64,000 nucleotides of DNA from Micromonospora sp. NBC_00421 (GTDB taxonomy: Bacteria > Actinomycetota > Actinomycetes > Mycobacteriales > Micromonosporaceae): contig NZ_CP107929.1 in NCBI RefSeq assembly GCF_036017915.1, positions 1,550,001 to 1,614,000 on the forward strand, given 5' to 3'. The stretch's first letter is position 1. Every line of letters starts with the position of its first letter. Below, piece by piece: positions 45,156 to 64,000 of the stretch. Made by a program: the position numbers and the translations under genes. The notes beneath the pieces were generated by a model, which had not been told where the DNA came from, ran no database searches, and saw only the letters and a program-made list of their open reading frames with translations.

Positions 45156-45188
45156 CCGGCGACATCGACGACCCGGTGGGAGGTGGGC

Positions 45189-46340: not shown

Positions 46341-46353
46341 GCGGAGTGGTCTG

Positions 46354-47385
46354 GTGCGCGCAACATTCACCCAGGAACAGCGGGAGATCGGTGCGACAGT
46401 GGGCTCGCTCGCGGACGCCGACCGTGGCACCGCCCGCGAGCTGCTGGCCGGTCCGTGGCGGGCCCCGGCGGCTGACGGGCCGTTGCTGCGGGACTTCGGG
46501 CTGCTCGGGGTGCCCGAGTCGGCCGGTGGCATCGGGTCGGGCCTGATCGACCTGCTGGTCGCCGTCGAGGCGCTCGGCGAGCGGCTGGTGCCGAGCCGGT
46601 TCCCGGCGCACGCGGCGGCGGTCCAACTGCTCTGCGGCGACGAGCGGCGCACCGGTCCGCTCCCCGACGAGGTGCTCGACGGCCGCCGGGTGCTCACCCC
46701 GGCGGTCGACGTGCCGGGCAGCTCCGGGTGGGTCGACCGGGCGTCGCCGGACCCGCTGGTACGGACCCTGGTGCCGTACGCGGCGCAGGCGGACGGCGTC
46801 GTCGCCCTCGGCCCGGACGGGGTCTGGTTCGCCGACCCGCTCCGGACCACCGCCCGGCAGTCGGTGGACCCGGCGGTGCCGCTGTCGGACCTGACGGTGG
46901 CCGCCCCGGAGCGGACGCAGCCCGCCGGGTCCGGCCCGCTGCGGGCCGCGCTGGTGGTGGCGGCCGAGCTGTGCGGGGTGGCGCAGGGGGCGGTCGACCT
47001 GGCCGCCGAGCAGGCCCGGACGCGTCGGCAGTTCGGTCGGGTGATCGGTTCGTTCCAGGGGGTCGCGTTCCCGCTCGCCGAGGCGGCCACCGCCCGCAAG
47101 GCGGCCTGGGACCTGACCCTGTACGCGGCGTGGGCGGTGGACAACGGCCGGCCGGACGCCGCGATCCAGGTGCACGCCGCCAAGGCGGCGGCCGGGCAGG
47201 CGGCGGTCTTCGCCGCCGAGCGGTGCATCCAGGTGCACGGCGGGATGGGCATCACCATGGAGGCGGACCCGCACCTGTTCCTGCGCCGGGCGTTCGTGCT
47301 CGACGCCCGGTGCGGGCGGGGCGCGTGGCACCGGCGGCGGACCGGGGAGCTGCGGGTCGGGTCGCGTCGAACACCGCAGGCCTGA
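46354..47385 (+). CDS. Acyl-CoA dehydrogenase, smaller subunit of a FadE pair
   Basis: 343 residues. The C-terminal domain is clear (CGVAQGAVDLAAEQARTRRQFGRVIGSFQGVAFPLAEAATARKAAWDLTLYAAW; then HGGMGITMEADPHLFLRRA). The central FAD-contact motif is degenerate, and the glutamate position is not conserved. This division of labour is usual in alpha2beta2 FadE enzymes, where each subunit supplies part of the FAD site. It lies 13 bp after its partner. Confidence 0.85.
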   Translation: MRATFTQEQREIGATVGSLADADRGTARELLAGPWRAPAADGPLLRDFGLLGVPESAGGIGSGLIDLLVAVEALGERLVPSRFPAHAAAVQLLCGDERRTGPLPDEVLDGRRVLTPAVDVPGSSGWVDRASPDPLVRTLVPYAAQADGVVALGPDGVWFADPLRTTARQSVDPAVPLSDLTVAAPERTQPAGSGPLRAALVVAAELCGVAQGAVDLAAEQARTRRQFGRVIGSFQGVAFPLAEAATARKAAWDLTLYAAWAVDNGRPDAAIQVHAAKAAAGQAAVFAAERCIQVHGGMGITMEADPHLFLRRAFVLDARCGRGAWHRRRTGELRVGSRRTPQA

Positions 47386-47424
47386 CCTGCGGAAGTCTTG
47401 CCGGGCATCGGCCGGGGCAGTAAC

Positions 47425-47442
47425 ATACCGGCTGGTCGGAAT
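47425..47442. promoter_or_regulatory. TetR-regulon operator 6
   Basis: ATACCGGCTGGTCGGAAT lies 16 bp before the GTG of the first LLM-family gene, in a 73-bp gap. It gives this eight-gene run its own regulated promoter within otherwise co-directional genes. A possible -10 (TAACAT, 47421-47426) abuts it. Confidence 0.75.
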
Positions 47443-47458
47443 AAATGAGGAGAAGGCC

Positions 47459-48550
47459 GTGAAGTTCGGAATCATGAACCTGTTCCCGGTGGCCGACGGG
47501 GTCTCGGACCACCAGGTGCTCCGGGAGACCCTCGACGAGATCCAGCTGGCCGACGAGCTGGGCTTCGACTCGATCTGGCTCGCCGAACACCACTTCTCGA
47601 CGTACGGCATCCTCGGCAGCCCGGTGAACTTCGGCATGGCCGTCGCCGAGCGGACCCGGCAGATCACCATCGGCACCGCCGTCCTGGTGCTGCCGCTGCA
47701 CCACCCGCTGCGGCTGGCCGAGGACATCGCCGCCCTCGACGTGCTCAGCGGCGGCCGGGTCTCGATCGGCGTCGGCCGGGGTTACCAGCCCGCCGAGTTC
47801 GCCGGCTTCGGCATCCCGCTGGAGGAGTCGAAGCAGCGTTACCAGGAGACCCTGGAGATCCTGCGGCTCGCGCTGTCGCAGGAGAACTTCTCCTACCACG
47901 GCGAGATCTTCCACTACGACGACGTCACCACCTACCCGAGGCCGTTCACCCCGGGCGGGCCGCCGATCCTGCAGGGCACGGTCTCCCCGGAGAGCTTCCG
48001 GGAGCGCGGCGCGGTCGGCGAGTCGATCATCACCTCACCGAACTTCACGCCGTTGGGCATCATGCAGAAGAACTTCGACCTCTACCGGCAGAGCATGCGG
48101 GAGAACGGCTTCGACATCTCCACCTACGACCTGCCGTTCATGCAGCAGGTCTGGTGCGGTGACAGCGAGGAGGGCCTGCGCGCGGCCGCCCAGGCGGCGA
48201 TGAACTACTACAAGTCCGTCGGCAAGGTCATCCCCGGCTCGGAGGACGCCATCGCCAAGGAACGGTCCTACTACGCGGCCGTGGCCAAGAACATCGAGCT
48301 GCTGACCCTGGAGCAGACGCTTACCCACGGTGGCAACTTCGGCTCGGCCCAGCGCGTCATCGAGACCATCGAGATGCTGCGCGAACAGCTCGGCATCAAC
48401 CACTACATCGGCTGGCTGCGGATTCCGTCCCTGGACCGCAAGGCCGCACTGCGCTCGATGGAGGAGTTCGCCGACAAGGTCATCCCGCACTTCCGGGCCC
48501 AGGAGCGCGCCGCCGACAGCGTGCCCACTCCCGAGGCGGTCGCCGGGTGA
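47459..48550 (+). CDS. LLM-class F420/flavin-dependent oxidoreductase
   Basis: 363 residues, luciferase-like TIM barrel. Typical elements are FDSIWLAEHHFSTYGI, GTAVLVLPLHHPLRLAEDIAALDVLSGGRVSIGVGRGYQPAEFAGFG and a C-terminal GWLRIPSLD. Family members use F420H2 for hydride transfer or FMNH2 for oxygenation, and the sequence alone does not settle which. It is the first of four LLM genes in 7 kb and is directly behind operator 6. GGAGAAGG precedes the GTG. Confidence 0.88.
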   Translation: MKFGIMNLFPVADGVSDHQVLRETLDEIQLADELGFDSIWLAEHHFSTYGILGSPVNFGMAVAERTRQITIGTAVLVLPLHHPLRLAEDIAALDVLSGGRVSIGVGRGYQPAEFAGFGIPLEESKQRYQETLEILRLALSQENFSYHGEIFHYDDVTTYPRPFTPGGPPILQGTVSPESFRERGAVGESIITSPNFTPLGIMQKNFDLYRQSMRENGFDISTYDLPFMQQVWCGDSEEGLRAAAQAAMNYYKSVGKVIPGSEDAIAKERSYYAAVAKNIELLTLEQTLTHGGNFGSAQRVIETIEMLREQLGINHYIGWLRIPSLDRKAALRSMEEFADKVIPHFRAQERAADSVPTPEAVAG

Positions 48551-49548
48551 AGATCAGCTGCTTCCTGAGCGCCCAGTTCGACCCGTCGGCGTCGGCCACC
48601 GAGGGCATCGACGGCGTACTGGCCCAGGCCGCCGCCGCCGAGGCGGCCGGCTTCCACGCCGTCTACCTCGGCCACCACTACCTGGCCCGATCGGCGTTCG
48701 TCCAGCCGGTCCCGCTGGCCGGCTACCTCGCCCACGCCACCTCCCGGGTCCGGATCGGGTTCGGGGTCCTGCTGGCCCCCCTGCTGAACCCGGTCGCGCT
48801 CGCGGAGGAGCTGGCCTCGCTCGACGTGCTCGCCGGCGGCCGGCTGACCGTCGGCATCGGCGCCGGCTACCGCCGCCGCGAGACCACCGCGTTCGGCGTC
48901 GCCTGGGAGGACCGGCTGCGGCGACTGCGGGAGTACGTGCCGATCCTGCGTTCCCTGTGGAACGGCGAGACGATCGACATCGCCGGGAGCTGGGGCGAGG
49001 TCCCCGGCGCGTCCCTGGCGCTGCGCCCGGCCCAGCCCGGCGGCCCACCACTGTGGATCGGCGCGTTCGCCGAACCCGCGATCCGCCGCGCCGCCCGACT
49101 GGACGCCCCGTGGCTGATCGGCCCCAAGGGCAACGACGGGGAACTGGCCCGACTGCTCGGCATCTACCGGGGTGACCTGGCCGAGCGGGGCTTCCCACTG
49201 GACCGGGAGTACCCGATGAGCCGTGAGGCGTACCTCGGCGACAGCTACCCGGCGGCCGTCGCGGCCGTCCGCCCGCACCTGCAACGCCAGTACGCCGGCT
49301 ACAAGTCCTGGGACGACGCGCAGTCTCTCGACCTGGACCGCTACCTGGCCGAGGACTGTCTGGTCGGCTCGGCCGACGAGATCGTCGCCAAGCTGCGCCG
49401 CTGGGAGAGCGAGTTGGGCATCACCGAGGTCTCGCTGCGCCACCAGTTCGTCGGCGCCGGCCAGGACGAGGCGATGGAACAGCTCGCCCGCTTCGGCGCG
49501 GAGGTCATCCCGAGGGTCACCACGACCGTGCCAGGGGGGACCCGGTGA
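48547..49548 (+). CDS. LLM-class F420/flavin-dependent oxidoreductase
   Basis: 333 residues. It has the LLM landmarks FHAVYLGHHYLARSAF, IGFGVLLAPLLNPVALAEELASLDVLAGGRLTVGIGAGYRRRE and GPPLWIGAFAEPAIRRAARLD. It diverges more from the others than they do from each other. The start overlaps the upstream stop (GTGA). Confidence 0.87.
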   Translation: MKISCFLSAQFDPSASATEGIDGVLAQAAAAEAAGFHAVYLGHHYLARSAFVQPVPLAGYLAHATSRVRIGFGVLLAPLLNPVALAEELASLDVLAGGRLTVGIGAGYRRRETTAFGVAWEDRLRRLREYVPILRSLWNGETIDIAGSWGEVPGASLALRPAQPGGPPLWIGAFAEPAIRRAARLDAPWLIGPKGNDGELARLLGIYRGDLAERGFPLDREYPMSREAYLGDSYPAAVAAVRPHLQRQYAGYKSWDDAQSLDLDRYLAEDCLVGSADEIVAKLRRWESELGITEVSLRHQFVGAGQDEAMEQLARFGAEVIPRVTTTVPGGTR

Positions 49549-51236
49549 ACGCCGGCAACCTGGCCGGCATCCTGGAGGGCCGGTGCGCCGACCGGGCCGA
49601 CCTGCCGGGCCTGTACGGCGAGGACGGCCGGTCCTGGACGTTCGACCAGATCGACCTGCTCGCCGGGGGTGTCGCCGCCGCGCTGCGGGCCGAGGGCGTC
49701 GGCCCCGGCGACCGGGTCGCCTGCTACCTGACCAACGGACCGGAGATCGTGTTCCTGCTCTTCGGCGCCTGGAAGATCGGCGCGGTGCCGGTCACCGTCA
49801 GCAGCCTCTACAACGCCGCCGAGCTGGCCGAGTCGGTGGCGAAGACCGCGCCCCGGCTGCTGCTGGTCGACGACCGCCGCCCGGACGTGGTAGCCGAGTT
49901 CCTGGCCGCGCAGGACGCCGTAAGGGTCACCGCCTCCGCCGCTTCCGTCCCCGCCGTCGCTTCCGCCGGCTCCGGCTCCGCTGCTGACGACGCCGGCCAC
50001 GGCCGGCTGCCGGTGCGGTCCACCACACAGCCGTTGACCGGTGTGCCGGCGTTGCCGTGGCGGCGGGAGGTCCGGGTCACCGGGGTCGACGTCGGGCCGG
50101 AGGCCGAGGCGTGCATCCTGTTCACCGGGGGCACGACCGGGCGACCGAAGGCGGTCAGCGTCACCCACGGCGGGACCCGCGAGTCGCTGATGCGGCTGGC
50201 CCGGGTCACCACCGGCACCGAGGCCGAGGGCACCGCCGCGCCGCAGGCCAGGCCGAACCTCGTCGCCCTGCCGCTGTTCCACAGCGGCGGCCAGCACGCG
50301 CTGCTGTTCGCGTACTTCGTCGGCCGGCCGGCGGTGGTCTGGGAACGCTTCGGCGTCGACCGGCTCGCCGACCTGATGGCGCGGTTCGGTTTCGACAACC
50401 TCTTCCTACTGCCCACCATGGTCTTCGACATCGTGCACGCCGAGCGGGACCTGCCGTTCGACGGGGTCAAGTCCGTCCTGGTCGCCGGGCAGGCCATCTC
50501 CTGGCCGGTGCGGCGCGCGTTCGAAGAGCGCTACCGGGTGCCCATCCTGGTCAACTACGGCTCGACCGAGGCCGGGCACATCGCCGGCTGGACCGGCCGG
50601 GACATGAAGGCCGGTCGGTGGAAGCCGGGCTCCGCCGGCCGGGTCTACCCGGGTGTCGAGTTGGAGATCCGCGACGACGCCGGCACCGCGCTGTCGACCG
50701 GCGCGGCGGGTGAGGTGGTGGTCCGCTCCGCGCTGACCAGGGGGTACGTCGACGACGTCGCCGCGTCGGCCGAGCTGGTCCGGGACGGCTGGGTGCACAC
50801 CGGCGACATGGGCTACGTCGACGCCGACGGGGTGCTCTTCCTGGTCGGCCGCAAGCGGGACATGATCAAGTGCGGGGGTTTCCAGGTCTGGCCCGAGGAG
50901 ATCGAGGACGAACTGCGGGCGCATCCGCTGGTGCGGGACGTCCGGGTGCTCGGCCGGCCGGACGACCGGCTGGGCGAGATCCCCGTGGCGCTGGTGGTCC
51001 GGGTGGCCGACGACGCGGTCGCCGACACCGATCTCGCCGCGCGGCTCGTCGCGTACGCCCGGGAGCGGCTGGCCCACTTCAAGACCCCCCGGCGGATCGA
51101 GTTCGTGCCAGCCCTGGAACGCAGCGCCACCGGCAAGATCAGCCGCGCGGCGGCCCCCCTGCCGGAGGCGGACGGGGTCGCCCCCGTGGCGGTGTCCCGT
51201 ACGGACAGCCGATCGACAGCTTGGGGGAGCCGATGA
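49545..51236 (+). CDS. AMP-forming acyl-CoA synthetase with an Ala/Ser-rich insert
   Basis: 563 residues. Motifs: ILFTGGTTGRPKAVSVTHGG, NYGSTEAGH, HTGDMGYVDADGVLFLVGRKRDMIKCGGFQVWPEEIE, and lysine in SATGKISRAAA. An Ala/Ser/Gly-rich stretch (about residues 125-165) separates the first subdomain from the ATP motif and is not seen in the other synthetases here. It is the fourth synthetase of the 22-55 kb block, embedded between LLM genes with four-base overlaps. Confidence 0.88.
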   Translation: MNAGNLAGILEGRCADRADLPGLYGEDGRSWTFDQIDLLAGGVAAALRAEGVGPGDRVACYLTNGPEIVFLLFGAWKIGAVPVTVSSLYNAAELAESVAKTAPRLLLVDDRRPDVVAEFLAAQDAVRVTASAASVPAVASAGSGSAADDAGHGRLPVRSTTQPLTGVPALPWRREVRVTGVDVGPEAEACILFTGGTTGRPKAVSVTHGGTRESLMRLARVTTGTEAEGTAAPQARPNLVALPLFHSGGQHALLFAYFVGRPAVVWERFGVDRLADLMARFGFDNLFLLPTMVFDIVHAERDLPFDGVKSVLVAGQAISWPVRRAFEERYRVPILVNYGSTEAGHIAGWTGRDMKAGRWKPGSAGRVYPGVELEIRDDAGTALSTGAAGEVVVRSALTRGYVDDVAASAELVRDGWVHTGDMGYVDADGVLFLVGRKRDMIKCGGFQVWPEEIEDELRAHPLVRDVRVLGRPDDRLGEIPVALVVRVADDAVADTDLAARLVAYARERLAHFKTPRRIEFVPALERSATGKISRAAAPLPEADGVAPVAVSRTDSRSTAWGSR

Positions 51237-52225
51237 GGTTCGGCATCATGGCGTCGCACCAGTACCCGCCCGGCGACGACCTCGGCAGGCACCTCGACGA
51301 CCTGTTCGGCACCGTCGAACTCGCCGCGGAGCTGGGCTACGACTCGGTGTGGACGATCAACCACTTCCAGTCCAACCTGGCCACCCCGCAGCCGATCTCG
51401 ATGCTGGCGAGCCTGATCCCGCGCTCGGGGGACATGCTGCTCGGCACCGGCATCCTGCTGCTGCCGATGTTCCACCCGGTGCACGTCGCCGAGGAGTTCG
51501 CCACCCTGGACCACCTCTCCGGCGGACGGGTGATCCTCGGCGTCGGGGCGGGTTACCGGGAGAACGAGTTCGCGGCGTTCGGGGTCGACCCGGAGACCCG
51601 GTTCCGCCGGTTCGACGAGAGCCTGCGGCTCATCCGGGCGCTGTGGACCGGGAACCCGGTCACCCATGACGGGGAGTTCTATCCGCAGGTCGACGCCACC
51701 ATCGGCATCCCGCCGCTGACCCCGGGCGGCCCACCGATCTGGATCGGCGCCGGTGGGAAGAAAGCGGTCCGTCGGGCGGCCCGGCTCGGCGACGCCTGGT
51801 ACGCGCCGGGCAACTCACCGAGCCGCCGGTTCCTGCCGGAGCACCTGGCCGTCTACAACGAGGCGCTCGCCGAGTACGGCCGGGACCCGGCGACGGTGCA
51901 GCGGCCCGTCGGTGTGGAGCTGTACTGCGCGCCGAGCACCGAACAGGCCGTCGCGGAGGCGTTGCCGCACGCCCGGGTCGAGTACTCGACGTACGCCGAG
52001 TATCCGGCGCTGCGCTGGCAGCGGGACCGCTTCGACGAACTGGTCCGCAACACGCTGCTGCTGGGCTCGCCCGAACTCCTCGTCGAGCGGATCAGCGCCC
52101 TGCGCGACCTGGGCTTCGACCACCTCATCTTCCGTCCCGGGTGGCTCGGTATGCCGACCGAGAAGCTCCGCGCCTCGCTGCGACTGTTCGCCACCGAAGT
52201 GATCCCCGCCTTCCGTACCACCTGA
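51233..52225 (+). CDS. LLM-class F420/flavin-dependent oxidoreductase
   Basis: 330 residues, starting MRFGIMASHQYPPGDDLG. It shows YDSVWTINHFQSNLATPQP, GTGILLLPMFHPVHVAEEFATLDHLSGGRVILGVGAGYRENEF and the substrate-pocket segment GPPIWIGAGGKKAVRRAARLGDAWY. It is clearly paralogous to the gene at 53221, sharing the HQYxPGDDLG start, STPQP and the FRPGWLG/FRAQWLG end. GGGGGAG precedes the ATG, which overlaps the previous stop. Confidence 0.88.
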   Translation: MRFGIMASHQYPPGDDLGRHLDDLFGTVELAAELGYDSVWTINHFQSNLATPQPISMLASLIPRSGDMLLGTGILLLPMFHPVHVAEEFATLDHLSGGRVILGVGAGYRENEFAAFGVDPETRFRRFDESLRLIRALWTGNPVTHDGEFYPQVDATIGIPPLTPGGPPIWIGAGGKKAVRRAARLGDAWYAPGNSPSRRFLPEHLAVYNEALAEYGRDPATVQRPVGVELYCAPSTEQAVAEALPHARVEYSTYAEYPALRWQRDRFDELVRNTLLLGSPELLVERISALRDLGFDHLIFRPGWLGMPTEKLRASLRLFATEVIPAFRTT

Positions 52226-52239
52226 CCTAAGGAACCGCC

Positions 52240-53211
52240 GTGAAGAAGACCGAAGCCGAGCTGCTGGAAAGCCAGTGGGACGTCGAGAACATGGAGGTCG
52301 ATCCCGAGGTCCTCGCCAAGTACGTCCGCTACGACGTGGACGAGGAACGGGCCGTGGCCACCATCACCTTCGACCGCCCCGAGCGGCTCAACGCCATTCC
52401 GGTGGCTGCCTTCGAACGCGTCGGCGACCTGGTGAAGGAGGCGGAGACCGACGACCGGGTCAAGGTCATCGTGTTCAAGGGGGAGGGTGAGCACTTCGGC
52501 ACCGGCGCGGACGCCGCCGAACTCGGCCACTACATCGGCTACAAGACCGGCACCGACAAGGCGTCCCGGCGTCGACCGGCCCAGCGCCAGCGCATCCTGC
52601 CGGACCGCAACGTGCTCAGCTCCGGCTTCACCCGCCCGATCATCGAGTCGCTTAAGGCGACCATCTGTCAGGTGCAGGGCTACTGCTACGGCGGGCACTT
52701 CCAGATCGCGCTCTCGGCCGACATCGTCATCGCCTCCCCGGACGCCCGGTTCACCCACCCGGCGTTCCGCTACCTCGGTCCCGCCCCGCAGGACATGTAC
52801 CACTGGATCGAGAAGGTCGGCCTGACCACGATGAAGGACGTCATGCTCACCATGCGGGCGATCGGCGCGGAGGAGGGCGAACGCAAGGGTCTGGTCACCA
52901 AGGTCGTCGCACGCGAAGAACTGCAACGCTGGGTCGACGACTACGCCGACGCGATCGCCGTGATGCCGCTGGACTCGCTGATGATGGGCAAGTCGATGAT
53001 GCAGGTGGTGATGGAGGCCCGGGGCAAGGGCCTCGGAGCGATGACCGGCTGGGTCGGGCACGGCTGGGCCACCAACGTCAGCTTCGCCGACGGGGACTGG
53101 AACTTCCTCAAGGAGCGTCGGGAGAAGGGCATCGCGCAGGCGCTGGCCGACCGGGACCGGCTGGTGGCGCCCTACTTCCGGCTCAGCGACAGCCGGTCGC
53201 GGGAAGAGTAG
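52240..53211 (+). CDS. Crotonase-fold protein lacking both catalytic glutamates
   Basis: 323 residues, longer than most crotonases because of an N-terminal extension of about 35 residues. The fold is clear from FDRPERLNAIPVAAFERV and the oxyanion segment FGTGADAAELG. The two usual catalytic glutamates are replaced (YGGHFQIALSAD and THPAFRYLGPAPQDM), so hydration is unlikely; ring cleavage, hydrolysis or decarboxylation are possible. It separates two paralogous LLM genes. The GTG has AAGGA upstream. Confidence 0.82.
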   Translation: MKKTEAELLESQWDVENMEVDPEVLAKYVRYDVDEERAVATITFDRPERLNAIPVAAFERVGDLVKEAETDDRVKVIVFKGEGEHFGTGADAAELGHYIGYKTGTDKASRRRPAQRQRILPDRNVLSSGFTRPIIESLKATICQVQGYCYGGHFQIALSADIVIASPDARFTHPAFRYLGPAPQDMYHWIEKVGLTTMKDVMLTMRAIGAEEGERKGLVTKVVAREELQRWVDDYADAIAVMPLDSLMMGKSMMQVVMEARGKGLGAMTGWVGHGWATNVSFADGDWNFLKERREKGIAQALADRDRLVAPYFRLSDSRSREE

Positions 53212-53220
53212 GCGACCGGC

Positions 53221-54204
53221 GTGAGGTTCGGCATCCTGCTCGACCACCAGTACGCCCCCGGCGACGACCTGGGTCGCCGGGTCGGTGAGACAGTCGAGTA
53301 CGTCCAGCACATCCGCGACCTGGGCTACGACTCGGTCTTCGGTATCCACCACTACCTGTCGTCGCTGAGCACCCCGCAGCCGCTGCCGCTGCTGAGCCGG
53401 CTCATCGACCACTCCGGGACGATGCAACTCGGCACCGGCATCCTCATCCTGCCGCTGGGCCACCCGGTGCACTGGGCCGAGGAGATCGCCACCATCGACC
53501 AGATGTCCGGTGGCCGGTTCGTCCTCGGTATCGGCTCGGGCTACCGGGACGCCGAGTTCGCCTCGTTCGGCATCGAACGGCGAACCCGGGTGTCCCGGAT
53601 GAACGAGGCGCTGGCGGTGATGCAGCAGCTGTGGACCGGGGAGCCGGTGCACCACGAGGGTAGGCACTTCACCCTGGACGGGGTGCGGTGCAGCGTACCG
53701 CCGGTGCAGCGTCCGCATCCGCCGGTCTGGGTGGGCGCCAACGGCCCGACCGGCATCGCCCGGATCGCCCGGCAGGGGCTGCCCTGGCTCGCCCCGTCGA
53801 ACGTGCGCCGCAACTGGGCCGTCGGCAACCTGGCCGACTACCGCGAACAGCGGCGGGCCGCCGGCTTCGACGAGCGGGACGCGGTCTTCCCGATCCACCG
53901 GGACCTGTGCGTGGCCGACTCCGCCGACGCCGCGTTCGCCGTCGCCGGTGACGCGGTGAAACGCTCCTACGGAGAGTACGTCCAGTACGGTATGGACTTC
54001 TTCGAGTCGCAGTGGGACGCGATCAAGGAAAAGGCGCTCTTCTTCGGCTCGCCCGACGACATCGCCGCCAAGATCCAGGACTTCGCCGACGCCGGCTACA
54101 ACCACTTCGTGTTCCGTGCCCAGTGGCTCGGCCTGCCGATCGAACGGTCGATCGAGATCGTCGAGCGGTTCGCCCGCGAGGTCATGCCGAGGTTCCGCCC
54201 ATGA
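53221..54204 (+). CDS. LLM-class F420/flavin-dependent oxidoreductase
   Basis: 327 residues, starting MRFGILLDHQYAPGDDLG. It has YDSVFGIHHYLSSLSTPQP, GTGILILPLGHPVHWAEEIATIDQMSGGRFVLGIGSGYRDAEF and GANGPTGIARIARQGLPWL. It is the closest relative of the gene at 51233 within the window and probably arose from it by duplication around the crotonase gene. Its stop overlaps the VOC gene. Confidence 0.88.
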   Translation: MRFGILLDHQYAPGDDLGRRVGETVEYVQHIRDLGYDSVFGIHHYLSSLSTPQPLPLLSRLIDHSGTMQLGTGILILPLGHPVHWAEEIATIDQMSGGRFVLGIGSGYRDAEFASFGIERRTRVSRMNEALAVMQQLWTGEPVHHEGRHFTLDGVRCSVPPVQRPHPPVWVGANGPTGIARIARQGLPWLAPSNVRRNWAVGNLADYREQRRAAGFDERDAVFPIHRDLCVADSADAAFAVAGDAVKRSYGEYVQYGMDFFESQWDAIKEKALFFGSPDDIAAKIQDFADAGYNHFVFRAQWLGLPIERSIEIVERFAREVMPRFRP

Positions 54205-54759: not shown

Positions 54760-55422
54760 GTGAGCGTGAGTGATGGGCTGGTTGGTCGGACGGTCGGAGT
54801 GCTCGGTGGGACGGGGCCGCAGGGGCGGGGGTTGGCCCGGCGCTTCGGGGCGGCCGGGTTGGACGTCGTACTGGGGTCGCGGGACGCGGAGCGGGCGGGG
54901 CAGACGGCCGTCGCCCTGCCCGGTCGGGTGCGGGGCGGGTCGAACGCCGAGGCCGCTGCCGAGGCAGACATCGTGGTGGTCGCCGTGCCGTGGGCCGGGC
55001 ACGCCGATCTGCTCACCGCCCTCGCGCGGGTGTTGGCCGGGAAGATCGTGGTCGACTGCGTGAACCCGCTGGGGTTCGACAAGCAGGGCGCCTACGCCCT
55101 CGCCGTCGCGGAGGGATCCGCCGCCCAGCAGGCCGCCGCGATCCTGACCGGGTCGCGGGTGGTCGCCGCGTTCCACCACGTCTCCGCCGTGCTCCTGGAG
55201 GACCCGGGCCTCGACCCGGTCGACACCGACGTCCTCGTGCTCGGTGACGACCGCGAGGCCACCGACCTGGTCCAGGATCTCGCTGCCACCATCCCCGGGG
55301 TCCGGGGTGTCTACGGCGGGCGGCTGCGCAACGCTCACCAGGTCGAGGCGTTCACCGCCAACCTCATCGCGGTCAACCGGCGCTACCGGGCCCACGCGGG
55401 CCTGCGGATCACCGACGTGTGA
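54760..55422 (+). CDS. fno: NADPH:coenzyme F420 oxidoreductase
   Basis: 220 residues, matching F420-dependent NADP reductases (Fno/NpdG). The NADPH-binding motif is VLGGTGPQGRGLARRFGAAGLDVVLGSRD, followed by VVAVPWAGH, DCVNPLGFDKQG and AFHHVSAVLLEDP. It regenerates F420H2 from NADPH. Its position behind four LLM-family genes suggests that at least some of those use F420. GAAGGAG lies eight bases before the GTG at 54760, which was preferred over an upstream in-frame start at 54736. Confidence 0.92.
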   Translation: MSVSDGLVGRTVGVLGGTGPQGRGLARRFGAAGLDVVLGSRDAERAGQTAVALPGRVRGGSNAEAAAEADIVVVAVPWAGHADLLTALARVLAGKIVVDCVNPLGFDKQGAYALAVAEGSAAQQAAAILTGSRVVAAFHHVSAVLLEDPGLDPVDTDVLVLGDDREATDLVQDLAATIPGVRGVYGGRLRNAHQVEAFTANLIAVNRRYRAHAGLRITDV

Positions 55423-56469: not shown

Positions 56470-57705
56470 ATGTTCGATGTAATCGTTGTCGGTGCACGCT
56501 GCGCGGGTTCGCCCGTGGCAATGCTGTTGGCCCGACGTGGCCACCGGGTCCTGATGGTCGACCGCTCCTCATTTCCGAGCGACGCGGTGTCGACCCACTA
56601 CATCCACCAGGCCGGGCTGTCCCGCCTCCAGGCGTGGGGACTGCTCGACGAGGTGATCGACGCGAAGACGCCGGCCATCCGGAAGATGAACTACGCCAAC
56701 CACGGCATCCCGTTGACCGGGTTCGCCGATCCGATCGACGGGATCGACGCGGTCTACTGCCCGCGTCGGGTCGTGCTCGACGAGATCCTGGTCAACGCCG
56801 CCCGCCGGGCCGGCGTCGAGGTCCTCGAGCAGTTCACCGTCTCCGACCTGGTCTTCTCCGACGGTCGGGTGGTGGGCATCCGGGGCCGCGAGGGCGACGG
56901 GCCGGAGCAGGAGTACCGGTCCACGGTGGTGGTCGGCGCCGACGGCTTCCACTCCACGGTCGCTCGGAAGGTCGGCGCGGAGCTGTACAACGTGCGGCCC
57001 GCCGCCGGCTTCACCTACTACTCCTACTACAGCGGGCTGGACTGGGGCCTGCACCACAAGACCGGCTTCCACGAGCAGTGGTTCGGCACCTGGCCGACCA
57101 ACGGCGACGTCAACATGGTCGCCGTCATCTGCACCCGCCGGCAGCTCAAGGAGTTCCGCCAGGACCCCGAGGCGCGTTTCCTGGCCGTCTTCGACGACGT
57201 CGAACCGGAGATGGGCGCGCAGCTGCGCGAGCAGGGCCGGCGCGAGGAGCCGTTGCGGCCGATGCGCTACCCGGACAACTACTACCGCCGCTCGCACGGC
57301 CCCGGCTGGGCGCTGGTGGGCGACGCCGGCTACCACAAGGACCCCATCACCGGGTGGGGCATGACCGACGCCTTCCTGCACGGCGAACTGCTCGCCGACC
57401 GCATCCACGAGGCGCTCTCCGGCGAGCGGACCATGGACGACGCCCTCGCCGACTACGTCAAGGTGCGCGACGAGGAGAGCGCGCCGGTCTACGACTACAC
57501 CACGGCGATGGCCGAGCTGACCCTCGACCCGTACCTGGAGGCGGTGCTCGGCGCGATCAGCACCAGCCAGGAGTGGACCACCAAGATGCTCGGCATGATC
57601 GCCGGCGGGGTCGAGGGGCACGAGCTGTTCGCCCCCGACAACCTGGACCGGATCTACGACGACGCCGGCGTACCCCCGCACAAGCGGATCTACGAACCGT
57701 CCTGA
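56470..57705 (+). CDS. FAD-dependent oxidoreductase (geranylgeranyl reductase/monooxygenase family)
   Basis: 411 residues. The Rossmann motif is VIVVGARCAGSPVAMLLARRGHRVLMVDR, the middle motif is VVVGADGFHST, and the C-terminal FAD segment is WALVGDAGYHKDPITGWGMTDAF. The layout is that of single-component flavoprotein monooxygenases and reductases; no halogenase tryptophan motif (WxWxIP) is present. It is the first gene of the biosynthetic operon. The ATG at 56470 begins the fold and has a GGAG ribosome site; an upstream in-frame GTG adds unrelated sequence. Confidence 0.87.
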   Translation: MFDVIVVGARCAGSPVAMLLARRGHRVLMVDRSSFPSDAVSTHYIHQAGLSRLQAWGLLDEVIDAKTPAIRKMNYANHGIPLTGFADPIDGIDAVYCPRRVVLDEILVNAARRAGVEVLEQFTVSDLVFSDGRVVGIRGREGDGPEQEYRSTVVVGADGFHSTVARKVGAELYNVRPAAGFTYYSYYSGLDWGLHHKTGFHEQWFGTWPTNGDVNMVAVICTRRQLKEFRQDPEARFLAVFDDVEPEMGAQLREQGRREEPLRPMRYPDNYYRRSHGPGWALVGDAGYHKDPITGWGMTDAFLHGELLADRIHEALSGERTMDDALADYVKVRDEESAPVYDYTTAMAELTLDPYLEAVLGAISTSQEWTTKMLGMIAGGVEGHELFAPDNLDRIYDDAGVPPHKRIYEPS

Positions 57706-57806: not shown

Positions 57807-58967
57807 ATGACGCGCGCGTCCAGCATGTTCGATCTCATCGGCCAACAGGACGACCAACGGTCCTACTACGACACCGGCGGCCGTGGCCGGTCCCACGCGT
57901 TCTACACCGGTGAGGAACAGCACCAGCGGGAGCTGGAACGGATCTACCGCCGCCGCTGGCTGCCGGTGGACCACGTCTCCCGGTTCACCGAGAAGGGCTC
58001 CTACGCGACCCTGACCATCGGCACCGGCTCGATCCTGATCATCAACGGCGACAACGGCATCCAGGCGTACCACAACTACTGCCGCCACCGGGGGTACCGG
58101 CTGGTGGAGGAGGCCACCGGCAAGCGGCAGAGCATCGTCTGCATCTACCACTGCTGGGTCTACGACCGCAACGGCAAGCTCAAGAGCTTCAACGGCACGT
58201 ACTTCGACCACTTCTTCGACAAGGAGAAGAACGGCCTGCTGCCGATCCGTACCGAGATCCGGTTCGGGGTCGTCTTCGTCACCTTCTCCGACGACGCCCC
58301 CGACCTCGACGCCTCCCTCGGCGAGTTCGGCGAGTTCGCCCGGGTCTACGAGCTGGCCGACCTGAAGTGCGTGCAGGCGAAGGACTACCCGGTCGCCTCC
58401 AACTGGAAGCTGGTGGCGCACAACGTCAACGAGAGCCTGCACTTCCCGACGGCACACAAGGACCTGCACCGGATCACCGACTTCGACGACGCGGGCACCT
58501 ACGAGCTCAAGGGCGACATCGTCGGCGCGTGGCAGGTCATCCGGGACAAGTACAACTCGGTGTCGATGACCGGACGCAGCGACCGGACACCCATGCCGCT
58601 GGTCCCGGACGCCGACCTCAAGAAGATCAACTGGATCACCATCCTGCCGAACCTGCTCTTCGGCTTCACCGCCGACTACGTGATGATGCAGTGGGTCTGG
58701 CCGGAGAGCCCGAGCACCTGCTACGTGCGGCACTTCTGGCTGTTCCACCCCTCCGAGACGGCCCGCAGCGACTTCTCGCACGAGGCCGTCTTCGCGCTCT
58801 GGGACAAGGCCAACTACGAGGACTGGGAGATGTGCGAGCGGACCCACCGCGGCCTGTCCAACCCGCTCTGGTCGCCCGGGCAGCTCTCCCTGGACGAGGA
58901 GGTCGTCTCCCAGATCGACGCCTGGGTGGCGCGCGAGACGGCCGACCCCGTCGACACCGAGGGATGA
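57807..58967 (+). CDS. Rieske non-haem iron oxygenase, alpha subunit type
   Basis: 386 residues. Rieske [2Fe-2S] ligands are C92 and H94 (CRHRG) and C112 and H115 (CIYHCW). The mononuclear iron site has H212 and H217 in ESLHFPTAH, with a carboxylate expected later. The C-terminal part resembles ring-hydroxylating oxygenases. No ferredoxin or reductase gene adjoins it, so electrons must come from elsewhere. In a biosynthetic operon it probably hydroxylates, desaturates or cyclises an intermediate. AGGAGG precedes the ATG; the stop overlaps the megasynthase ATG. Confidence 0.9.
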   Translation: MTRASSMFDLIGQQDDQRSYYDTGGRGRSHAFYTGEEQHQRELERIYRRRWLPVDHVSRFTEKGSYATLTIGTGSILIINGDNGIQAYHNYCRHRGYRLVEEATGKRQSIVCIYHCWVYDRNGKLKSFNGTYFDHFFDKEKNGLLPIRTEIRFGVVFVTFSDDAPDLDASLGEFGEFARVYELADLKCVQAKDYPVASNWKLVAHNVNESLHFPTAHKDLHRITDFDDAGTYELKGDIVGAWQVIRDKYNSVSMTGRSDRTPMPLVPDADLKKINWITILPNLLFGFTADYVMMQWVWPESPSTCYVRHFWLFHPSETARSDFSHEAVFALWDKANYEDWEMCERTHRGLSNPLWSPGQLSLDEEVVSQIDAWVARETADPVDTEG

Positions 58968-61900
58968 CGGCCGTGGTCAACTGCTTCCTCATCGGCGGCA
59001 CCCGGGTCCTGGCCCGCTGCGCCGACCAGCTCGTCGAGGCCGGGATCCGCGTCGAGGGCGTCTTCACCGACGACCCGGTCGCCGCCGCCTGGGCGGACGC
59101 GCACGACGTCCCGGTGCTGGACCCGCACGCCGACCTCGCCGCCGCGCTCACCGCCACCGAGGTCGACTACCTGTTCAGTATCGTCAACTTCCGGATCCTG
59201 CCCGGCCCGGTGCTGGCGCTGCCGAAGGTGGCCGCGGTCAACTTCCACGACGGTCCGCTGCCCCGCTACTCCGGCAGCAACGTCGCCGCCTGGGCGCTCT
59301 ACGAGGGGGCGACCCGGCACGCCGCGACCTGGCACCTGATGACCGAGGCGGTGGACGCCGGCCCCGTGTTGCTGGAACGGTGGTTCCCGGTCCGGACGCA
59401 TTCCACCGCGCTCTCCCTGACCTACGAGACCGCCGAGGTGGGCATCGCGCTCTTCGCCGACCTCGTCGGGCACCTGCTGCGGCGCGGACTGCCCGAACCG
59501 GTCGACACCGGCGACCGGGAGCGTCGCTTCTACCACCAGCGCGACCGGATCGCCGGCGGTGGCCTCATCCACGCCGGCACCTCCGCCACCGAGGCCGAAC
59601 GCATCGCCAAGGCCCTCGACTACGGCACGTTCCCCAACCCGCTCGGGGTGCCGGCGCTGATCACCGCCCAGGGTGCGGTGTTCACCAGCCAGGTCCGGCG
59701 CATCCCCCGCGAGGACCCGCCGTCGGTGACCGTCGCGACGGCCGTGACCGACTCCGCGCTGACCCTGTCCACCCCCGACGGCGACCTGCTGCTGAGCGAC
59801 TTCACGGCGACCGACGGCAGTGCGCTCAGCGGCCGGGCAGTGGCCCAGCGGCTGGGCATCACCCCGGGCCGGCCGCTGCCGGCCGCGCCACCCGGGCGGT
59901 TGGCGGCGATCACCGACGCGCAGGGTCCGCTGCGCCGGCACGAGTCCTGGTGGAGGGCCCGCCTGACCGACCTGCGGCCGGCGCCGCTGCCCGCCGAGGA
60001 CTTCACCGCCGCGTCCGCCCACTACGGCCGGTACGAGCTGGCCTACCTGCCCCGGTCCCGGGCCGAGACGGTCACCGTCATCCGCGCCTTCCTCGCCGTG
60101 CTCGCCGAACGGATGGAGGCGCCGAGCTTCGACTTCGCCTGGTCGACCTCCTCCGCGCCGGCCCTGGCCGAGGCGACCTGCGGGCTCGCCGTCGCCCGCG
60201 TCCCGGTGCGCTTCGACGCCGGCGCCGCCGACGAACTGTCCGCCCGGCTCGACGAGGCCACCGCCCGGCACGGTTACGCCACCGACCTGGAGGTACGCCT
60301 CGGTCTGGCACACCGCCCGGTCGGTGCCGACGGGCCGACCTTCACCCGGATCGCCGTCCTCCAGCGGCACCCCGACGACGAGGCGGCCACCGAGCCGGAC
60401 ACCGAGATCGCCCTGATCTGCCTGCACGACGGCCCGCCCACGGTGTTCGTCCGGGAAACCGCGATGTCCGCCGACGAGGCGCTGGAGTTCGCCGAGCGGG
60501 TCGAGGACATCGCCCTCGGGGCCATGCTCCTCGGCACCGCCGCGCCCATGCCCACGCCGGCTGCCGCGTCGACGCCCGCCGCTGCCGACGAGGCTGCGAT
60601 CGCCTCGGCCGAGCCCGCCCCCGCGGACAGGGTCGATTCGGCACCGGCCGGTGCGACGCCGCCCGACGGGTCCGGGGCCACCCGACACGACGGGTCCGAC
60701 GCCGTGGGCCCGACCGACGTCGCGTCGTACCCGGACCGTGCGGCCGAGCCGGCAGCCTCCGTACCCACAGTGCTGGATCTGGTCGCGGCCACCATGGCCG
60801 CCCGTCCGGACGCCGTCGCGGTCCGCAGCGGTGCCCGCCGGATCGACTACGCCACCCTGGACTCCTGGGCCGACGCCATCGCCGCCCACCTGTACGACCA
60901 GGGGATCGGTGCCGGGTCCGTCGTCGGCCTGCTCACCGAGCGCGGCCCCGACCTGGTCCCGGCGATGCTCGGCATCCTGCGGGTCGGGGCGGCGTTCCTG
61001 CCGCTCGACCCGAACTATCCGGTGGAACGACTGCGCCGCTACGTGCAGGTCGCCGAGTGCGATCTGATCCTCGCCGACGAACACAGCCTCGCGTTCGGCG
61101 CGTCGGTCGGTCCGGTGCTGCCGATCCCCGGCCCGGACGGGTCAGCGCTGGCCGCGCCGCCGACGGTCACCGGCGCCGACCTCGCGTACGTGCTGTTCAC
61201 CAGCGGGTCGACCGGCGAACCGAAGGGGGTGGAGATCGGGCACGCCGCCCTGGCGAACTTCCTGACCGGCATCGGCGAACGGCTCGGCTCGTCCGAGACC
61301 GACATCGTCCTCGCGCACACCACCGTCGCGTTCGACATCTCCCTGCTGGAACTGCTGCTGCCGCTGACCGTCGGCGCGACCGTGACCCTGGCGTCCCGGG
61401 CGGTGGCCCGCGACCCGCACCGGCTGGCCGACCTCATCGGCGAGGTCACCGTCGCCCAGGCCACCCCGAGCATGTGGCGGCTGCTGCTGGAGACCGGCTG
61501 GACGCCGAGGCCGCAGCTCACCGTCCTGTCCGGCGGCGAGGCCCTGGTGCCGGCGACCGCCCAGCAACTGCACGGCACCGCCCGTGCCCTGTGGAACCTC
61601 TACGGCCCCACCGAGGCGACGATCTGGGCGTCCGCCCACCGGGTCGAGTCGGTCGGCGCGTTCCTGCCCCTGGGCGAACCGCTGCCCAACCTCACCCTGC
61701 ACGTGCTCGACGCCGACCTGAACCCCGCCGACACCGGCGAGCTGTACCTGTCCGGCGTCGGCCTGGCCCGGGGCTACGTCAACCGCCCGGACCGCACCGC
61801 CGAGGTGTTCCTCACCCATCCGGCCAGCGGCCAGCGGCTCTACCGCACCGGGGACACCGTACGGCGGCACGCCGACGGCGCGATCGAGTGGTTGGGTCGG

Positions 61901-64000
61901 GCCGACTCGCAGGTCAAGGTCCGGGGCAACCGGATCGAACCAGCCGAGATCGAACGCGTCCTGGCGGAGTGCCCCGGCGTCACCGCCGCCGCCGTCGTCG
62001 CCGTCGCCTTCGAGGGCCGGGGCGAACCGCGGCTGACCGCGTACCTCGTCGGCGAGCGCACCCTGGTCAAGGCGGAGCTGGACACCTTCGTCGGCCGGCG
62101 GCTGCCCGAGTACATGGTGCCGGACGCCTATGTACGGCTCGACGCGATGCCGTTGACCGACAACGGCAAGATCGCCCGTGGCCGGCTGCCGCTGCCGGAC
62201 CGGCACACCATCATCCGCACCGGCGTCCCCTCCGTCGCACCCACCGCGACCCCGACGGCCACCGGCTCCACCCCGGAACCGACCGTCCCGCCGGAGCCCG
62301 CCGTCGTCCCGCAGTCGACCGTCGCGCCGGAGCACCGCATCGCGCGGGTCTTCGCCGCCGTGCTCGGTCACGACGAGTTCCTGGTCACCGACAACTTCTT
62401 CGACCTCGGTGGGGACTCGGCAAACGTCACCCGCGCGGCGCTGGCGCTCACCGAGGAGTTCGGCGTCCCGGTGAGCCCACCGGCGATCTTCGCCACCGGC
62501 ACCCCCGAACGGCTCGCCGGACTGCTCGAACCCGCGCCCAGCGCGTCCGGGCGCTCCCGGACCGGCACCACCGGGGCGACCCCCGAGCAGGCCGTCGTCG
62601 CTGCCGCCGAGGCGGTCGTCGCGGCCACCACCGACGCGGCTGCCGACCGTACCGTCGACGCCGCGTCGGACCCGGCGCACCCCGTCCCGGCCGGTGCGAC
62701 CGGCGGACCGCAGGCCGCGACCGGCGACCCGGCCGAACCCGACACCGTACGGCCGGAGCCGCCCCGCCACCGCGCACCGGCGACCCGGTCCGGGACCCCG
62801 GCACCCGACACCGTCGGGGAGCCGCTCGCCGTCATCGGCCTGGCCTGCCGGTTCCCCGGTGCCGCCACCCCCGACGAGTTCTGGGCCAACCTCGCCGACG
62901 GGGTTTCCAGCGTCGGAGACGCGCCGACCGGACACCGTGGCTGGGGTCACCTCTGGTCCACCGCCGACGAGGTCCCGACCGGCTGGGTCGACCGGGTCGA
63001 GCACTTCGACGCCGCCCGGTTCCAGCTCACCGACCGGGAGGCCCGACGGCTGGACCCGTTGCAGCGGCTGCTGCTGAGCGTCACCGACGAGGCCCTGGAG
63101 AGCTGCGGCCACACCGCCGCCTCCCTCGGCACCGCCACCGGCGTCTTCATCGGCACCATCGCCAGCGACTTCCCCGAACTGGTGGCGGGCAGCATCGGGG
63201 CCGGCGACCCGCACGTGGCCACCGGCACGGCGGTGTCGATGGTGGCCAACCGGCTCTCCCACGCCTTCAACTGGTCGGGGCCGAGCTTCGCCGTCGACAC
63301 GGCCTGCTCGTCCTCACTGGTCGCCCTGCACCAGGCGGCCATGCACCTGCGCGCCGGGGAGGTGGACGCGGCCGTCGTCGGCGCGGCCAACCTGGTGCTG
63401 ACCCCCACCAAGACCCGCTCCTTCCTGCGCAACGGCATGCTCTCCCCGACCGGGGTGTGCCGCACCTTCGACGACGACGCCGACGGGTACGTCCGGGGCG
63501 AGGGCTGTGGGGTCATCGTCCTGAAGCGGCTCGCCGACGCCGAACGCGACGGCGACCCGATCCTCGCGGTGGTCCGCGGGTCCGCGGTGAACCACACCGG
63601 TGCCGCCGGCTTCCTGACCGCGCCGAGCAGCACCGCCCAGCAGGCGGTGATCCGCAGCGCCCTGCGGCGGGCCGGCGTCGAGGCGGACGGGATCGGCTAC
63701 ATCGAGGCGCACGGCACCGGCACCCAGCTCGGGGACCTGATCGAGCTGGAGGCGTTGCAGGCCGCCCTGGGCCCGGCGCGGCGGGGCACGGTGGCGGTCG
63801 GCTCGGTGAAGACGAACATCGGCCACCTCGAACCGGCGGCCGGGATCGCCGGCCTGATCAAGACGATCCTCGCGCTCCAGGCGGACCGGATTCCGCCCTC
63901 GGCCCACCTCACCTTCCCGAACCGGGCGTTCCGCTTCGAGAACTCGCCGCTGTTCGTCCCGGACCGGCTCGTCCCGTGGGTCGGGCCCCGGGTCGCCGGG
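58964..64000 (+). CDS. Hybrid NRPS/PKS: formyltransferase, adenylation (Gly-like code), PCP, ketosynthase (3' end outside window)
   Basis: An open frame of 1,679 codons runs off the window end. Domains in order: formyltransferase (1-270) with N93, H95 and D131 at the exact spacing of Met-tRNA formyltransferase; a region like the C-terminal half of a condensation domain (about 330-500) without an HHxxxDG motif; an acidic/Ala-rich linker; adenylation domain (about 600-1080) with FTSGSTGEPKG at 745; PCP with the phosphopantetheine serine S1152 (GGDSA); a second linker; and a ketosynthase from 1285 with C1448, H1583 and H1621. The adenylation pocket reads D-I-L-M-L-G-L-I-W, one residue from the glycine code. 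Predicted starter is N-formylglycine. Confidence 0.92.
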   Translation, partial: MTAVVNCFLIGGTRVLARCADQLVEAGIRVEGVFTDDPVAAAWADAHDVPVLDPHADLAAALTATEVDYLFSIVNFRILPGPVLALPKVAAVNFHDGPLPRYSGSNVAAWALYEGATRHAATWHLMTEAVDAGPVLLERWFPVRTHSTALSLTYETAEVGIALFADLVGHLLRRGLPEPVDTGDRERRFYHQRDRIAGGGLIHAGTSATEAERIAKALDYGTFPNPLGVPALITAQGAVFTSQVRRIPREDPPSVTVATAVTDSALTLSTPDGDLLLSDFTATDGSALSGRAVAQRLGITPGRPLPAAPPGRLAAITDAQGPLRRHESWWRARLTDLRPAPLPAEDFTAASAHYGRYELAYLPRSRAETVTVIRAFLAVLAERMEAPSFDFAWSTSSAPALAEATCGLAVARVPVRFDAGAADELSARLDEATARHGYATDLEVRLGLAHRPVGADGPTFTRIAVLQRHPDDEAATEPDTEIALICLHDGPPTVFVRETAMSADEALEFAERVEDIALGAMLLGTAAPMPTPAAASTPAAADEAAIASAEPAPADRVDSAPAGATPPDGSGATRHDGSDAVGPTDVASYPDRAAEPAASVPTVLDLVAATMAARPDAVAVRSGARRIDYATLDSWADAIAAHLYDQGIGAGSVVGLLTERGPDLVPAMLGILRVGAAFLPLDPNYPVERLRRYVQVAECDLILADEHSLAFGASVGPVLPIPGPDGSALAAPPTVTGADLAYVLFTSGSTGEPKGVEIGHAALANFLTGIGERLGSSETDIVLAHTTVAFDISLLELLLPLTVGATVTLASRAVARDPHRLADLIGEVTVAQATPSMWRLLLETGWTPRPQLTVLSGGEALVPATAQQLHGTARALWNLYGPTEATIWASAHRVESVGAFLPLGEPLPNLTLHVLDADLNPADTGELYLSGVGLARGYVNRPDRTAEVFLTHPASGQRLYRTGDTVRRHADGAIEWLGRADSQVKVRGNRIEPAEIERVLAECPGVTAAAVVAVAFEGRGEPRLTAYLVGERTLVKAELDTFVGRRLPEYMVPDAYVRLDAMPLTDNGKIARGRLPLPDRHTIIRTGVPSVAPTATPTATGSTPEPTVPPEPAVVPQSTVAPEHRIARVFAAVLGHDEFLVTDNFFDLGGDSANVTRAALALTEEFGVPVSPPAIFATGTPERLAGLLEPAPSASGRSRTGTTGATPEQAVVAAAEAVVAATTDAAADRTVDAASDPAHPVPAGATGGPQAATGDPAEPDTVRPEPPRHRAPATRSGTPAPDTVGEPLAVIGLACRFPGAATPDEFWANLADGVSSVGDAPTGHRGWGHLWSTADEVPTGWVDRVEHFDAARFQLTDREARRLDPLQRLLLSVTDEALESCGHTAASLGTATGVFIGTIASDFPELVAGSIGAGDPHVATGTAVSMVANRLSHAFNWSGPSFAVDTACSSSLVALHQAAMHLRAGEVDAAVVGAANLVLTPTKTRSFLRNGMLSPTGVCRTFDDDADGYVRGEGCGVIVLKRLADAERDGDPILAVVRGSAVNHTGAAGFLTAPSSTAQQAVIRSALRRAGVEADGIGYIEAHGTGTQLGDLIELEALQAALGPARRGTVAVGSVKTNIGHLEPAAGIAGLIKTILALQADRIPPSAHLTFPNRAFRFENSPLFVPDRLVPWVGPRVAG

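What the first reader, a model, noticed from the sequence alone, without database searches (positions are those of the whole stretch)
58964..64000. N-formylglycine-primed hybrid NRPS/PKS assembly line
Seen: formyltransferase with an intact N93/H95/D131 set, an adenylation domain, a PCP with its serine, and a ketosynthase with an intact Cys/His/His set, all in one frame. The nine specificity positions read DILMLGLIW against DILQLGLIW for glycine. Known: formyltransferase-adenylation-PCP starter modules prime linear gramicidin, and N-formylglycine starters lead to the 5-substituted oxazole of oxazolomycin- and conglobatin-type polyketides. Inference: this cluster begins a formyl-glycyl, possibly oxazole-capped, polyketide.
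Basis: partly seen in the sequence, partly recalled or inferred. Interest (0 to 1): 0.85.

Follow-up and report, generated by a model that had tools for sequence, protein, structure and literature searches.

The report
Formylglycine polyketide cluster with DNA-repair gene
The start of a bacterial assembly line that begins a molecule with formylated glycine belongs to a conserved, apparently undescribed gene cluster, and a DNA-repair gene locked inside it suggests that the molecule attacks DNA.

Summary
One ORF from ATG 58964 encodes formyltransferase (FT), adenylation (A), PCP and KS with intact catalytic residues. One correction: code position 278 is Q, not M, so DILQLGLIW matches the (recalled) glycine code exactly.

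Beyond the window lies an 11-gene cluster: four PKS proteins with six KS but only two AT domains, a terminal PLP alpha-oxoamine synthase (aminoketone release likely), Rieske and FAD oxygenases, an HDAC-like deacylase, and a full-length AlkC DNA glycosylase overlapping PKS genes on both sides. Of 17 named family genomes tested, AlkC is in 17, the oxoamine synthase in 16 and the HDAC-like gene in 16.

The formylglycine start is supported. The oxazole cap is not: the OzmP/CongE-type PP-loop word is in no frame of 37 of 37 family loci, while 3 of 3 Streptomyces FT loci outside the family have such a gene right after the FT gene.

Best reading: formylglycine primes a polyketide released as an aminoketone; the formyl group may be temporary; the product is DNA-reactive and AlkC protects the producer. 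Product chemistry and AlkC's role are inferred. Ten searches of an open-access library found no paper on this cluster.

The parts
56470..57705 (+). FAD-dependent oxidoreductase (g059), probable start ATG 56470
   Evidence: Pfam FAD_binding_3 1.7e-20; VVGARCAGSP motif upstream of the first called start; present in 19 of 20 close family loci, the miss being a contig end
57807..58967 (+). Rieske oxygenase (g060)
   Evidence: Pfam Ring_hydroxyl_A 1.9e-40 and Rieske 2.1e-14; CxH-CxxH motif; in 20 of 20 close family loci
58964..64000 (+). PKS1 gene, part inside the window (continues to 68557 in extended coordinates)
58964..59893 (+). Formyltransferase domain, residues 1-310, N93/H95/D131
   Evidence: Pfam, invariant triad, structural match to Fmt/ArnA over about 310 residues
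59894..60733 (+). Linker between FT and A, residues 311-590, unidentified
   Evidence: no Pfam match, no convincing PDB profile match for residues 311-533
60791..62170 (+). Adenylation domain, code DILQLGLIW (glycine)
   Evidence: Pfam, code
62336..62527 (+). PCP with serine (GGDSA)
   Evidence: Pfam PP-binding, motif
62819..63910 (+). Ketosynthase KS1, Cys/His/His intact
   Evidence: Pfam, motifs

Best explanation
This is the loading module of a conserved 11-gene actinobacterial cluster: FAD oxidoreductase, Rieske oxygenase, PKS1, PKS2, PKS3, AlkC, PKS4, a 101-aa protein, HDAC-like deacylase, thioesterase, MFS exporter. Shown by sequence: an FT-A(Gly)-PCP starter; six KS domains in three pairs, where modules 1, 3 and 5 are KS-DH-ACP and modules 2, 4 and 6 carry the KR; only two AT domains (modules 2 and 6); an alpha-oxoamine synthase at the end of PKS4. 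Inferred: glycine is loaded and formylated on the PCP and extended by up to six malonyl units, the two ATs or another AT also serving the AT-less modules. The PLP domain condenses the ACP-bound chain with an amino acid, with loss of CO2, and releases an alpha-aminoketone. The Rieske and FAD enzymes oxidise the product. The HDAC-like enzyme may remove the formyl group and unmask the starter amine. The product or its activated form alkylates DNA, and the overlapping AlkC gene protects the producer by excising the adducts.
For: Domains; glycine code in the family; oxoamine synthase best matches solved AONS/KBL and serine palmitoyltransferase, 4.5e-85, PLP lysine motif TLSK. AlkC matches solved AlkC at 4.2e-66 over residues 6-372 of 373, with polar residues E127, R157, R158, W170 and D209 invariant in 23 of 23 aligned AlkC proteins. 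AlkC is in 17 of 17 genomes, on the same contig as the oxoamine synthase in 14; HDAC-like in 16 of 17, next to the oxoamine synthase in 16 of 16. AlkC overlaps both flanking PKS genes in 9 of 10 clusters, the tenth being held on one side only. The 10 cluster AlkC copies form one group (93/98). The HDAC-like active-site motifs are intact and its relatives include amide hydrolases such as propanil hydrolase.
Against: No compound is known. The substrates of the HDAC-like, Rieske and FAD enzymes are unknown and deformylation is a guess. Stand-alone AlkC genes up to 69% identical exist without PKS genes, so AlkC need not mean a genotoxin. Bacillus cereus AlkC did not excise hedamycin or trioxacarcin adducts (PMC9040887, PMC8934636, passages). 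The KR-less modules with DH motifs are not explained. The linker between FT and A is unidentified and the FT model has a low-confidence loop at residues 98-105 next to the catalytic motif.
Confidence: 0.55

Rival explanations
1. Oxazole route: the N-formylglycyl unit is cyclodehydrated to a 5-substituted oxazole as in oxazolomycin or conglobatin, perhaps by the KR-less DH of module 1 in place of OzmP/CongE.
For: Same FT-A(Gly)-PCP start; module 1 has a DH with intact motifs but no KR, so a dehydration role other than alkene formation is open.
Against: OzmP/CongE-type PP-loop word in 0 of 37 family loci and 0 in 158 kb around the cluster, against 3 of 3 Streptomyces FT loci outside the family. 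The conserved HDAC-like deacylase is easier to explain if the formyl carbon is not locked in a ring.
Confidence: 0.15
2. The formyl group is permanent, as in linear gramicidin, and the HDAC-like enzyme acts on another acyl group or on the aminoketone end.
For: Nothing shows that the HDAC-like enzyme deformylates; its solved relatives hydrolyse several amides.
Against: Only the FT is an evident N-acylating step in the 11 genes, so another acyl substrate has no visible origin.
Confidence: 0.3
3. AlkC is not self-resistance: it is a hitch-hiking repair gene or a HEAT-repeat scaffold for the PKS.
For: 12 stand-alone AlkC loci of the class sample have no PKS-sized neighbour; HEAT repeats often serve as scaffolds (recalled).
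Against: Full-length AlkC with invariant polar residues; overlap with both PKS genes in 9 of 10 clusters from Streptomyces, Micromonospora and Nocardiopsis; a separate cluster lineage; one genome (G286) has both a cluster and a stand-alone copy.
Confidence: 0.25

Closest known systems
Conglobatin/oxazolomycin starter module (CongA/OzmO)
   Same: FT-A(Gly)-PCP start followed by a PKS
   Different: Here FT-A-PCP is fused to the first PKS modules, no OzmP/CongE gene, release by an oxoamine synthase, AlkC and HDAC-like genes present
Linear gramicidin synthetase LgrA initiation module
   Same: Formyltransferase-adenylation-PCP initiation; LgrA is the best solved match of the A domain
   Different: F-domain similarity is weak; here a PKS follows, not an NRPS
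Alpha-oxoamine synthase terminated assembly lines (prodigiosin PigH, saxitoxin SxtA, fumonisin; recalled)
   Same: C-terminal PLP oxoamine synthase after an ACP
   Different: Formylglycine start and a six-KS line with two ATs; membership of any named pathway not seen
Genotoxin clusters with a DNA glycosylase (yatakemycin YtkR2, azinomycin AlkZ, trioxacarcin TxnU4)
   Same: DNA glycosylase gene inside a biosynthetic cluster
   Different: Those are AlkD-like or HTH_42 proteins (PMC8934636, PMC8626424, PMC9040887, passages); this one is AlkC, and the product is unknown

Membership tests
Formylating NRPS starter module (F-A-PCP) | Formyltransferase with N/H/D triad, A domain and PCP in one chain | tested here: met
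Formylating NRPS starter module (F-A-PCP) | A domain selects glycine | tested here: met
   code DILQLGLIW; glycine code recalled; by sequence only
Formylating NRPS starter module (F-A-PCP) | Formyl transfer to the PCP-bound amino acid | not testable with these tools
   needs an assay
Oxazolomycin/conglobatin-type 5-oxazole polyketides | OzmP/CongE-type PP-loop gene next to the starter gene | tested here: not met
   0 of 37 family loci, 0 in 158 kb; 3 of 3 Streptomyces FT loci outside the family have it
Oxazolomycin/conglobatin-type 5-oxazole polyketides | Oxazole in the product | not testable with these tools
   product unknown
Alpha-oxoamine synthase | AONS-fold PLP domain with lysine, after an ACP | tested here: met
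AlkC alkylpurine DNA glycosylase | Full-length homology including the Ig-like C-terminal part and conserved polar residues | tested here: met
   which residues are catalytic is recalled
DNA-glycosylase self-resistance gene of a genotoxin cluster | Glycosylase gene fixed inside the biosynthetic operon | tested here: met
   17 of 17 genomes have it, 14 on the same contig as the oxoamine synthase; overlaps in 9 of 10 clusters
DNA-glycosylase self-resistance gene of a genotoxin cluster | Excises the adducts of the cluster's own product | not testable with these tools
   needs product and enzyme

The most novel reading that the evidence does not exclude
A widespread family of DNA-alkylating polyketides built with a temporary N-formyl cap: formylglycine primes the line, an alpha-oxoamine synthase releases an aminoketone, an HDAC-like deformylase frees the starter amine, which cyclises onto a ketone to a reactive imine or enamine that alkylates DNA, and an AlkC-type glycosylase, a kind not named as a self-resistance gene in the passages I read, excises the adducts.
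Probability: 0.25. Interest if true: 0.85.

Novelty: new variant of a known kind. Interest (0 to 1): 0.62.

Why it matters
A cluster carried by many actinobacteria (single protein clusters labelled Streptomyces albidoflavus hold 292 and 280 member sequences) seems to have no assigned product. A DNA glycosylase gene that overlaps its PKS genes makes a concrete prediction of mode of action, testable in laboratory Streptomyces. If the formyl group is a removable cap, it adds a protecting-group logic to assembly-line chemistry; if AlkC is self-resistance, it adds a glycosylase family to resistance-guided genome mining.

Tried and rejected
Oxazole route: looked for the OzmP/CongE gene in called genes and then in every frame; rejected as the leading reading. 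The three control loci (L033, L057, L086) were chosen as the Streptomyces loci outside the close family, before the scan; that they make oxazoles was not verified otherwise. Their PP-loop genes have no Pfam match and a weak match to a sugar amidotransferase (0.0004, one of the three tested).

Condensation-domain remnant between FT and A: suspected by eye; no Pfam match and only two chance-level PDB profile matches (0.47 and 0.6); left unidentified.

101-aa protein g066: four-helix model (pLDDT 88), no structural match with E below 0.001.

Upstream genes (AMP-binding, acyl-CoA dehydrogenase, luciferase-like, enoyl-CoA hydratase): rejected as cluster members because among L010-L029 only M. matsumotoense L014 shares them.

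Discrete trans-AT: none among the 11 genes; the genome-wide search (81 matches) shows only the two module ATs inside the cluster. An AT from elsewhere in the genome cannot be excluded.

Known product: searches gave no paper describing this cluster; others listed only part of their hits (20 of 23, 30 of 2185, 20 of 112, 14 of 15). Streptophenazine Q carries an N-formylglycine (PMC10221052, one passage) but is a phenazine. The AlkC structure paper is not held.

S. niveus lacks oxoamine-synthase and HDAC-like matches; probably an assembly gap, since a S. niveus protein of this kind is listed (P0160).
Full report
The observation. The window is bases 1550001-1614000 of a 7.23-Mb single-contig genome. 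It is a Micromonospora by its nearest matches: M. matsumotoense 97% for the FT region and M. humida 89%. From ATG 58964 one frame carries FT, A, PCP and KS. FT residues N93, H95 and D131 are invariant in 20 of 20 aligned family members. A stricter text pattern fitted 73 of 75 homologues; the other two have the same three residues with DGG in place of DAG. PCP serine and KS Cys/His/His are intact. An AlphaFold2 model of residues 1-590 (20 sequences, mean pLDDT 66.1, pTM 0.55, residues 98-105 below 50) matches two-domain formyltransferases over about 310 residues, best E 5.1e-19 (Fmt, target TM 0.69); ArnA with N5-formyl-THF is at 1.1e-15. The code has one error in the finding: position 278 is Q (VAQATPS), so it reads DILQLGLIW. 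By script it was read in 73 of 75 homologues: DILQLGLIW 62, DILQLGLVW 3, DILQLGMIW 3, DIMQCGLIW 2 and three single variants.

Extension to the right. I took 94 kb past the window and called genes by codon-position GC with a simple script. In window coordinates carried past 64000: PKS1 58964-68557 is FT-linker-A-PCP-KS1-DH-ACP-KS2-AT; PKS2 68568-77912 is DH-KR-ACP-KS3-DH-ACP-KS4-KR-ACP; PKS3 77950-84204 is KS5-DH-ACP-KS6-AT; AlkC 84201-85322; PKS4 85319-89392 is DH-KR-ACP-oxoamine synthase; then a 101-aa protein 89486-89791, HDAC-like 89894-91009, thioesterase 91006-91839 and MFS exporter 91870-93417 (domains). Upstream lie the Rieske gene (57807-58967) and the FAD gene (56470-57705). The genome-wide AT search shows only two ATs in the cluster. 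They carry GHSVGE and HAFH, a malonyl-type motif from recall. DH motifs are intact in modules 1, 2, 3 and 6 and altered in module 5 (HSVYRRIMLP, LDSVTI). PKS3 of one Streptomyces and one Nocardiopsis copy has the same content: two KS, one DH, one ACP, one AT, no KR.

Conservation. The Rieske gene is in 20 of 20 and the FAD gene in 19 of 20, the miss being a contig end. I tested the genomes of 17 of these 20 loci: oxoamine synthase (74-99%) in 16, AlkC (67-97%) in 17, HDAC-like (72-96%) in 16. AlkC and oxoamine synthase lie on one contig in 14 of 17; in G008 and G011 they lie on different contigs and in G003 (S. niveus) the oxoamine synthase was not found. Fetched stretches of the right half show the same gene order in Streptomyces, Nonomuraea, Microtetraspora, Nocardiopsis and Micromonospora. 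Beyond the 11 genes the neighbours differ between genera. In a class-wide draw, 6 of 394 genomes have an oxoamine-synthase match at 1e-90 or better, 3 of them at 76-100%, and these 3 each have the cluster AlkC; in the genus 5 of 101. So the cluster is widely spread but sporadic.

AlkC. Pfam calls this protein only DNA_alkylation. It matches solved AlkC at 4.2e-66 over residues 6-372 of 373, the Ig-like part included, and it is the only AlkC match in its genome at 1e-5. In the class draw 26 of 394 genomes have an AlkC at 1e-20 or better. I fetched 15 places from 14 of these 26 genomes: 2 are cluster copies, 12 stand alone with no called gene above 1,100 aa nearby, and 1 (L122) gave no called gene. 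A tree of the 10 cluster copies, the 12 stand-alone copies and the solved AlkC puts the cluster copies together (93/98, 94% of bootstrap trees, 0 of 500 label shuffles as good); its output warns of long branches for the solved AlkC and two stand-alone rows. AlkC overlaps both flanking PKS genes in 9 of 10 clusters (own, L094, L098, L099, L100, L101, L106, L108, L110); for L093 only the PKS3 side was looked at, and it overlaps. Starts come from my simple gene caller. One genome (G286) has both a cluster and a stand-alone copy. A TetR gene follows the exporter in 7 of the fetched copies (Streptomyces, Nonomuraea, Microtetraspora) and two families of small genes recur in 5 copies each; Pfam, run on the L100 members, calls the small ones glyoxalase/bleomycin-resistance type. 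They are not seen in the Micromonospora and Nocardiopsis copies.

Oxazole test. PMC4504003 (passages) says that congA-congE-congB match ozmO-ozmP-ozmQ and proposes CongE/OzmP, with SGGKDS, as cyclodehydratase. The word SGG[KVLI]DS occurs in no called gene and in no reading frame of the 158 kb here and of 37 family loci from 22 genomes. It occurs in 6 of 60 FT loci outside the family. In the 3 Streptomyces ones (L033, L057, L086) a 376-383-aa gene with it stands directly after the FT gene. Many family loci hold only part of the cluster, but in L013, L021, L024, L025 and L026 PKS2 follows PKS1 directly, where OzmP would be expected.

How it probably works. Shown: gene and domain content, motifs, order, co-occurrence. 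Inferred: glycine loading and formylation, six extensions with AT sharing, PLP-catalysed decarboxylative release, oxidation, deformylation, DNA attack, AlkC repair. The weakest links are deformylation (the HDAC-like motifs GHHAE, DWDVHHG, DASGHDP and GGYS are intact, but the substrate is unknown) and the DNA-reactive product. B. cereus AlkC did not act on hedamycin or trioxacarcin adducts (PMC9040887, PMC8934636, passages), so a cluster AlkC would have to be specialised or the adducts small.

Against print. Ten full-text searches of the open PMC library showed no description of this cluster or of AlkC as a cluster-borne resistance gene. The abstract of PMC8934636 names YtkR2/AlkD and AlkZ/YcaQ as the families found to remove adducts of bacterial natural products. 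PMC9040887 and PMC8626424 were seen in passages, PMC9570651 in abstract and outline. Most subscription papers are not held, so a published product cannot be excluded.

Noticed in passing
extended coordinates 66686-68424 and 82315-84053 (past the window): The KS-AT stretches of modules 2 and 6 are 99.3% identical over 1,739 bases, with a shorter 94% copy in module 4: recent gene conversion, and a trap for short-read assembly.
   Followed up: partly
L101:8997-16298: M. matsumotoense has an extra PKS ORF between PKS3 and AlkC whose second KS runs into a partial AT; an extra module pair or a repeat-collapse artefact.
   Followed up: partly
window 59894-60733: A linker between FT and A, conserved over residues 311-533 (76% mean column identity in 12 sequences), has no Pfam or PDB profile match.
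   Followed up: partly
L009:14486-14788: The 101-aa protein g066 is kept in the cluster (14 sequences aligned), models as four helices and has no significant fold match.
   Followed up: yes
L100:11564-13797 and similar places in L092, L095, L096, L103, L104, L105: TetR and glyoxalase/bleomycin-resistance-type genes recur after the exporter in Streptomyces, Nonomuraea and Microtetraspora copies only.
   Followed up: partly
window 43608-54204: A run of four luciferase-like proteins, two AMP-binding ligases, acyl-CoA dehydrogenases and an enoyl-CoA hydratase, with an F420 reductase (NpdG-type) gene at 54799-55422: looks like an F420-dependent catabolic operon.
   Followed up: no
L031 and protein P0204 (Acanthopleuribacter pedis): The same far-off bacterium appears among the FT loci and among the KR-ACP-oxoamine-synthase proteins; a possible distant cousin of the cluster.
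   Followed up: no
L116:9193-13093: A stand-alone AlkC lies two genes from an exporter 54% identical to the cluster's MFS protein.
   Followed up: no
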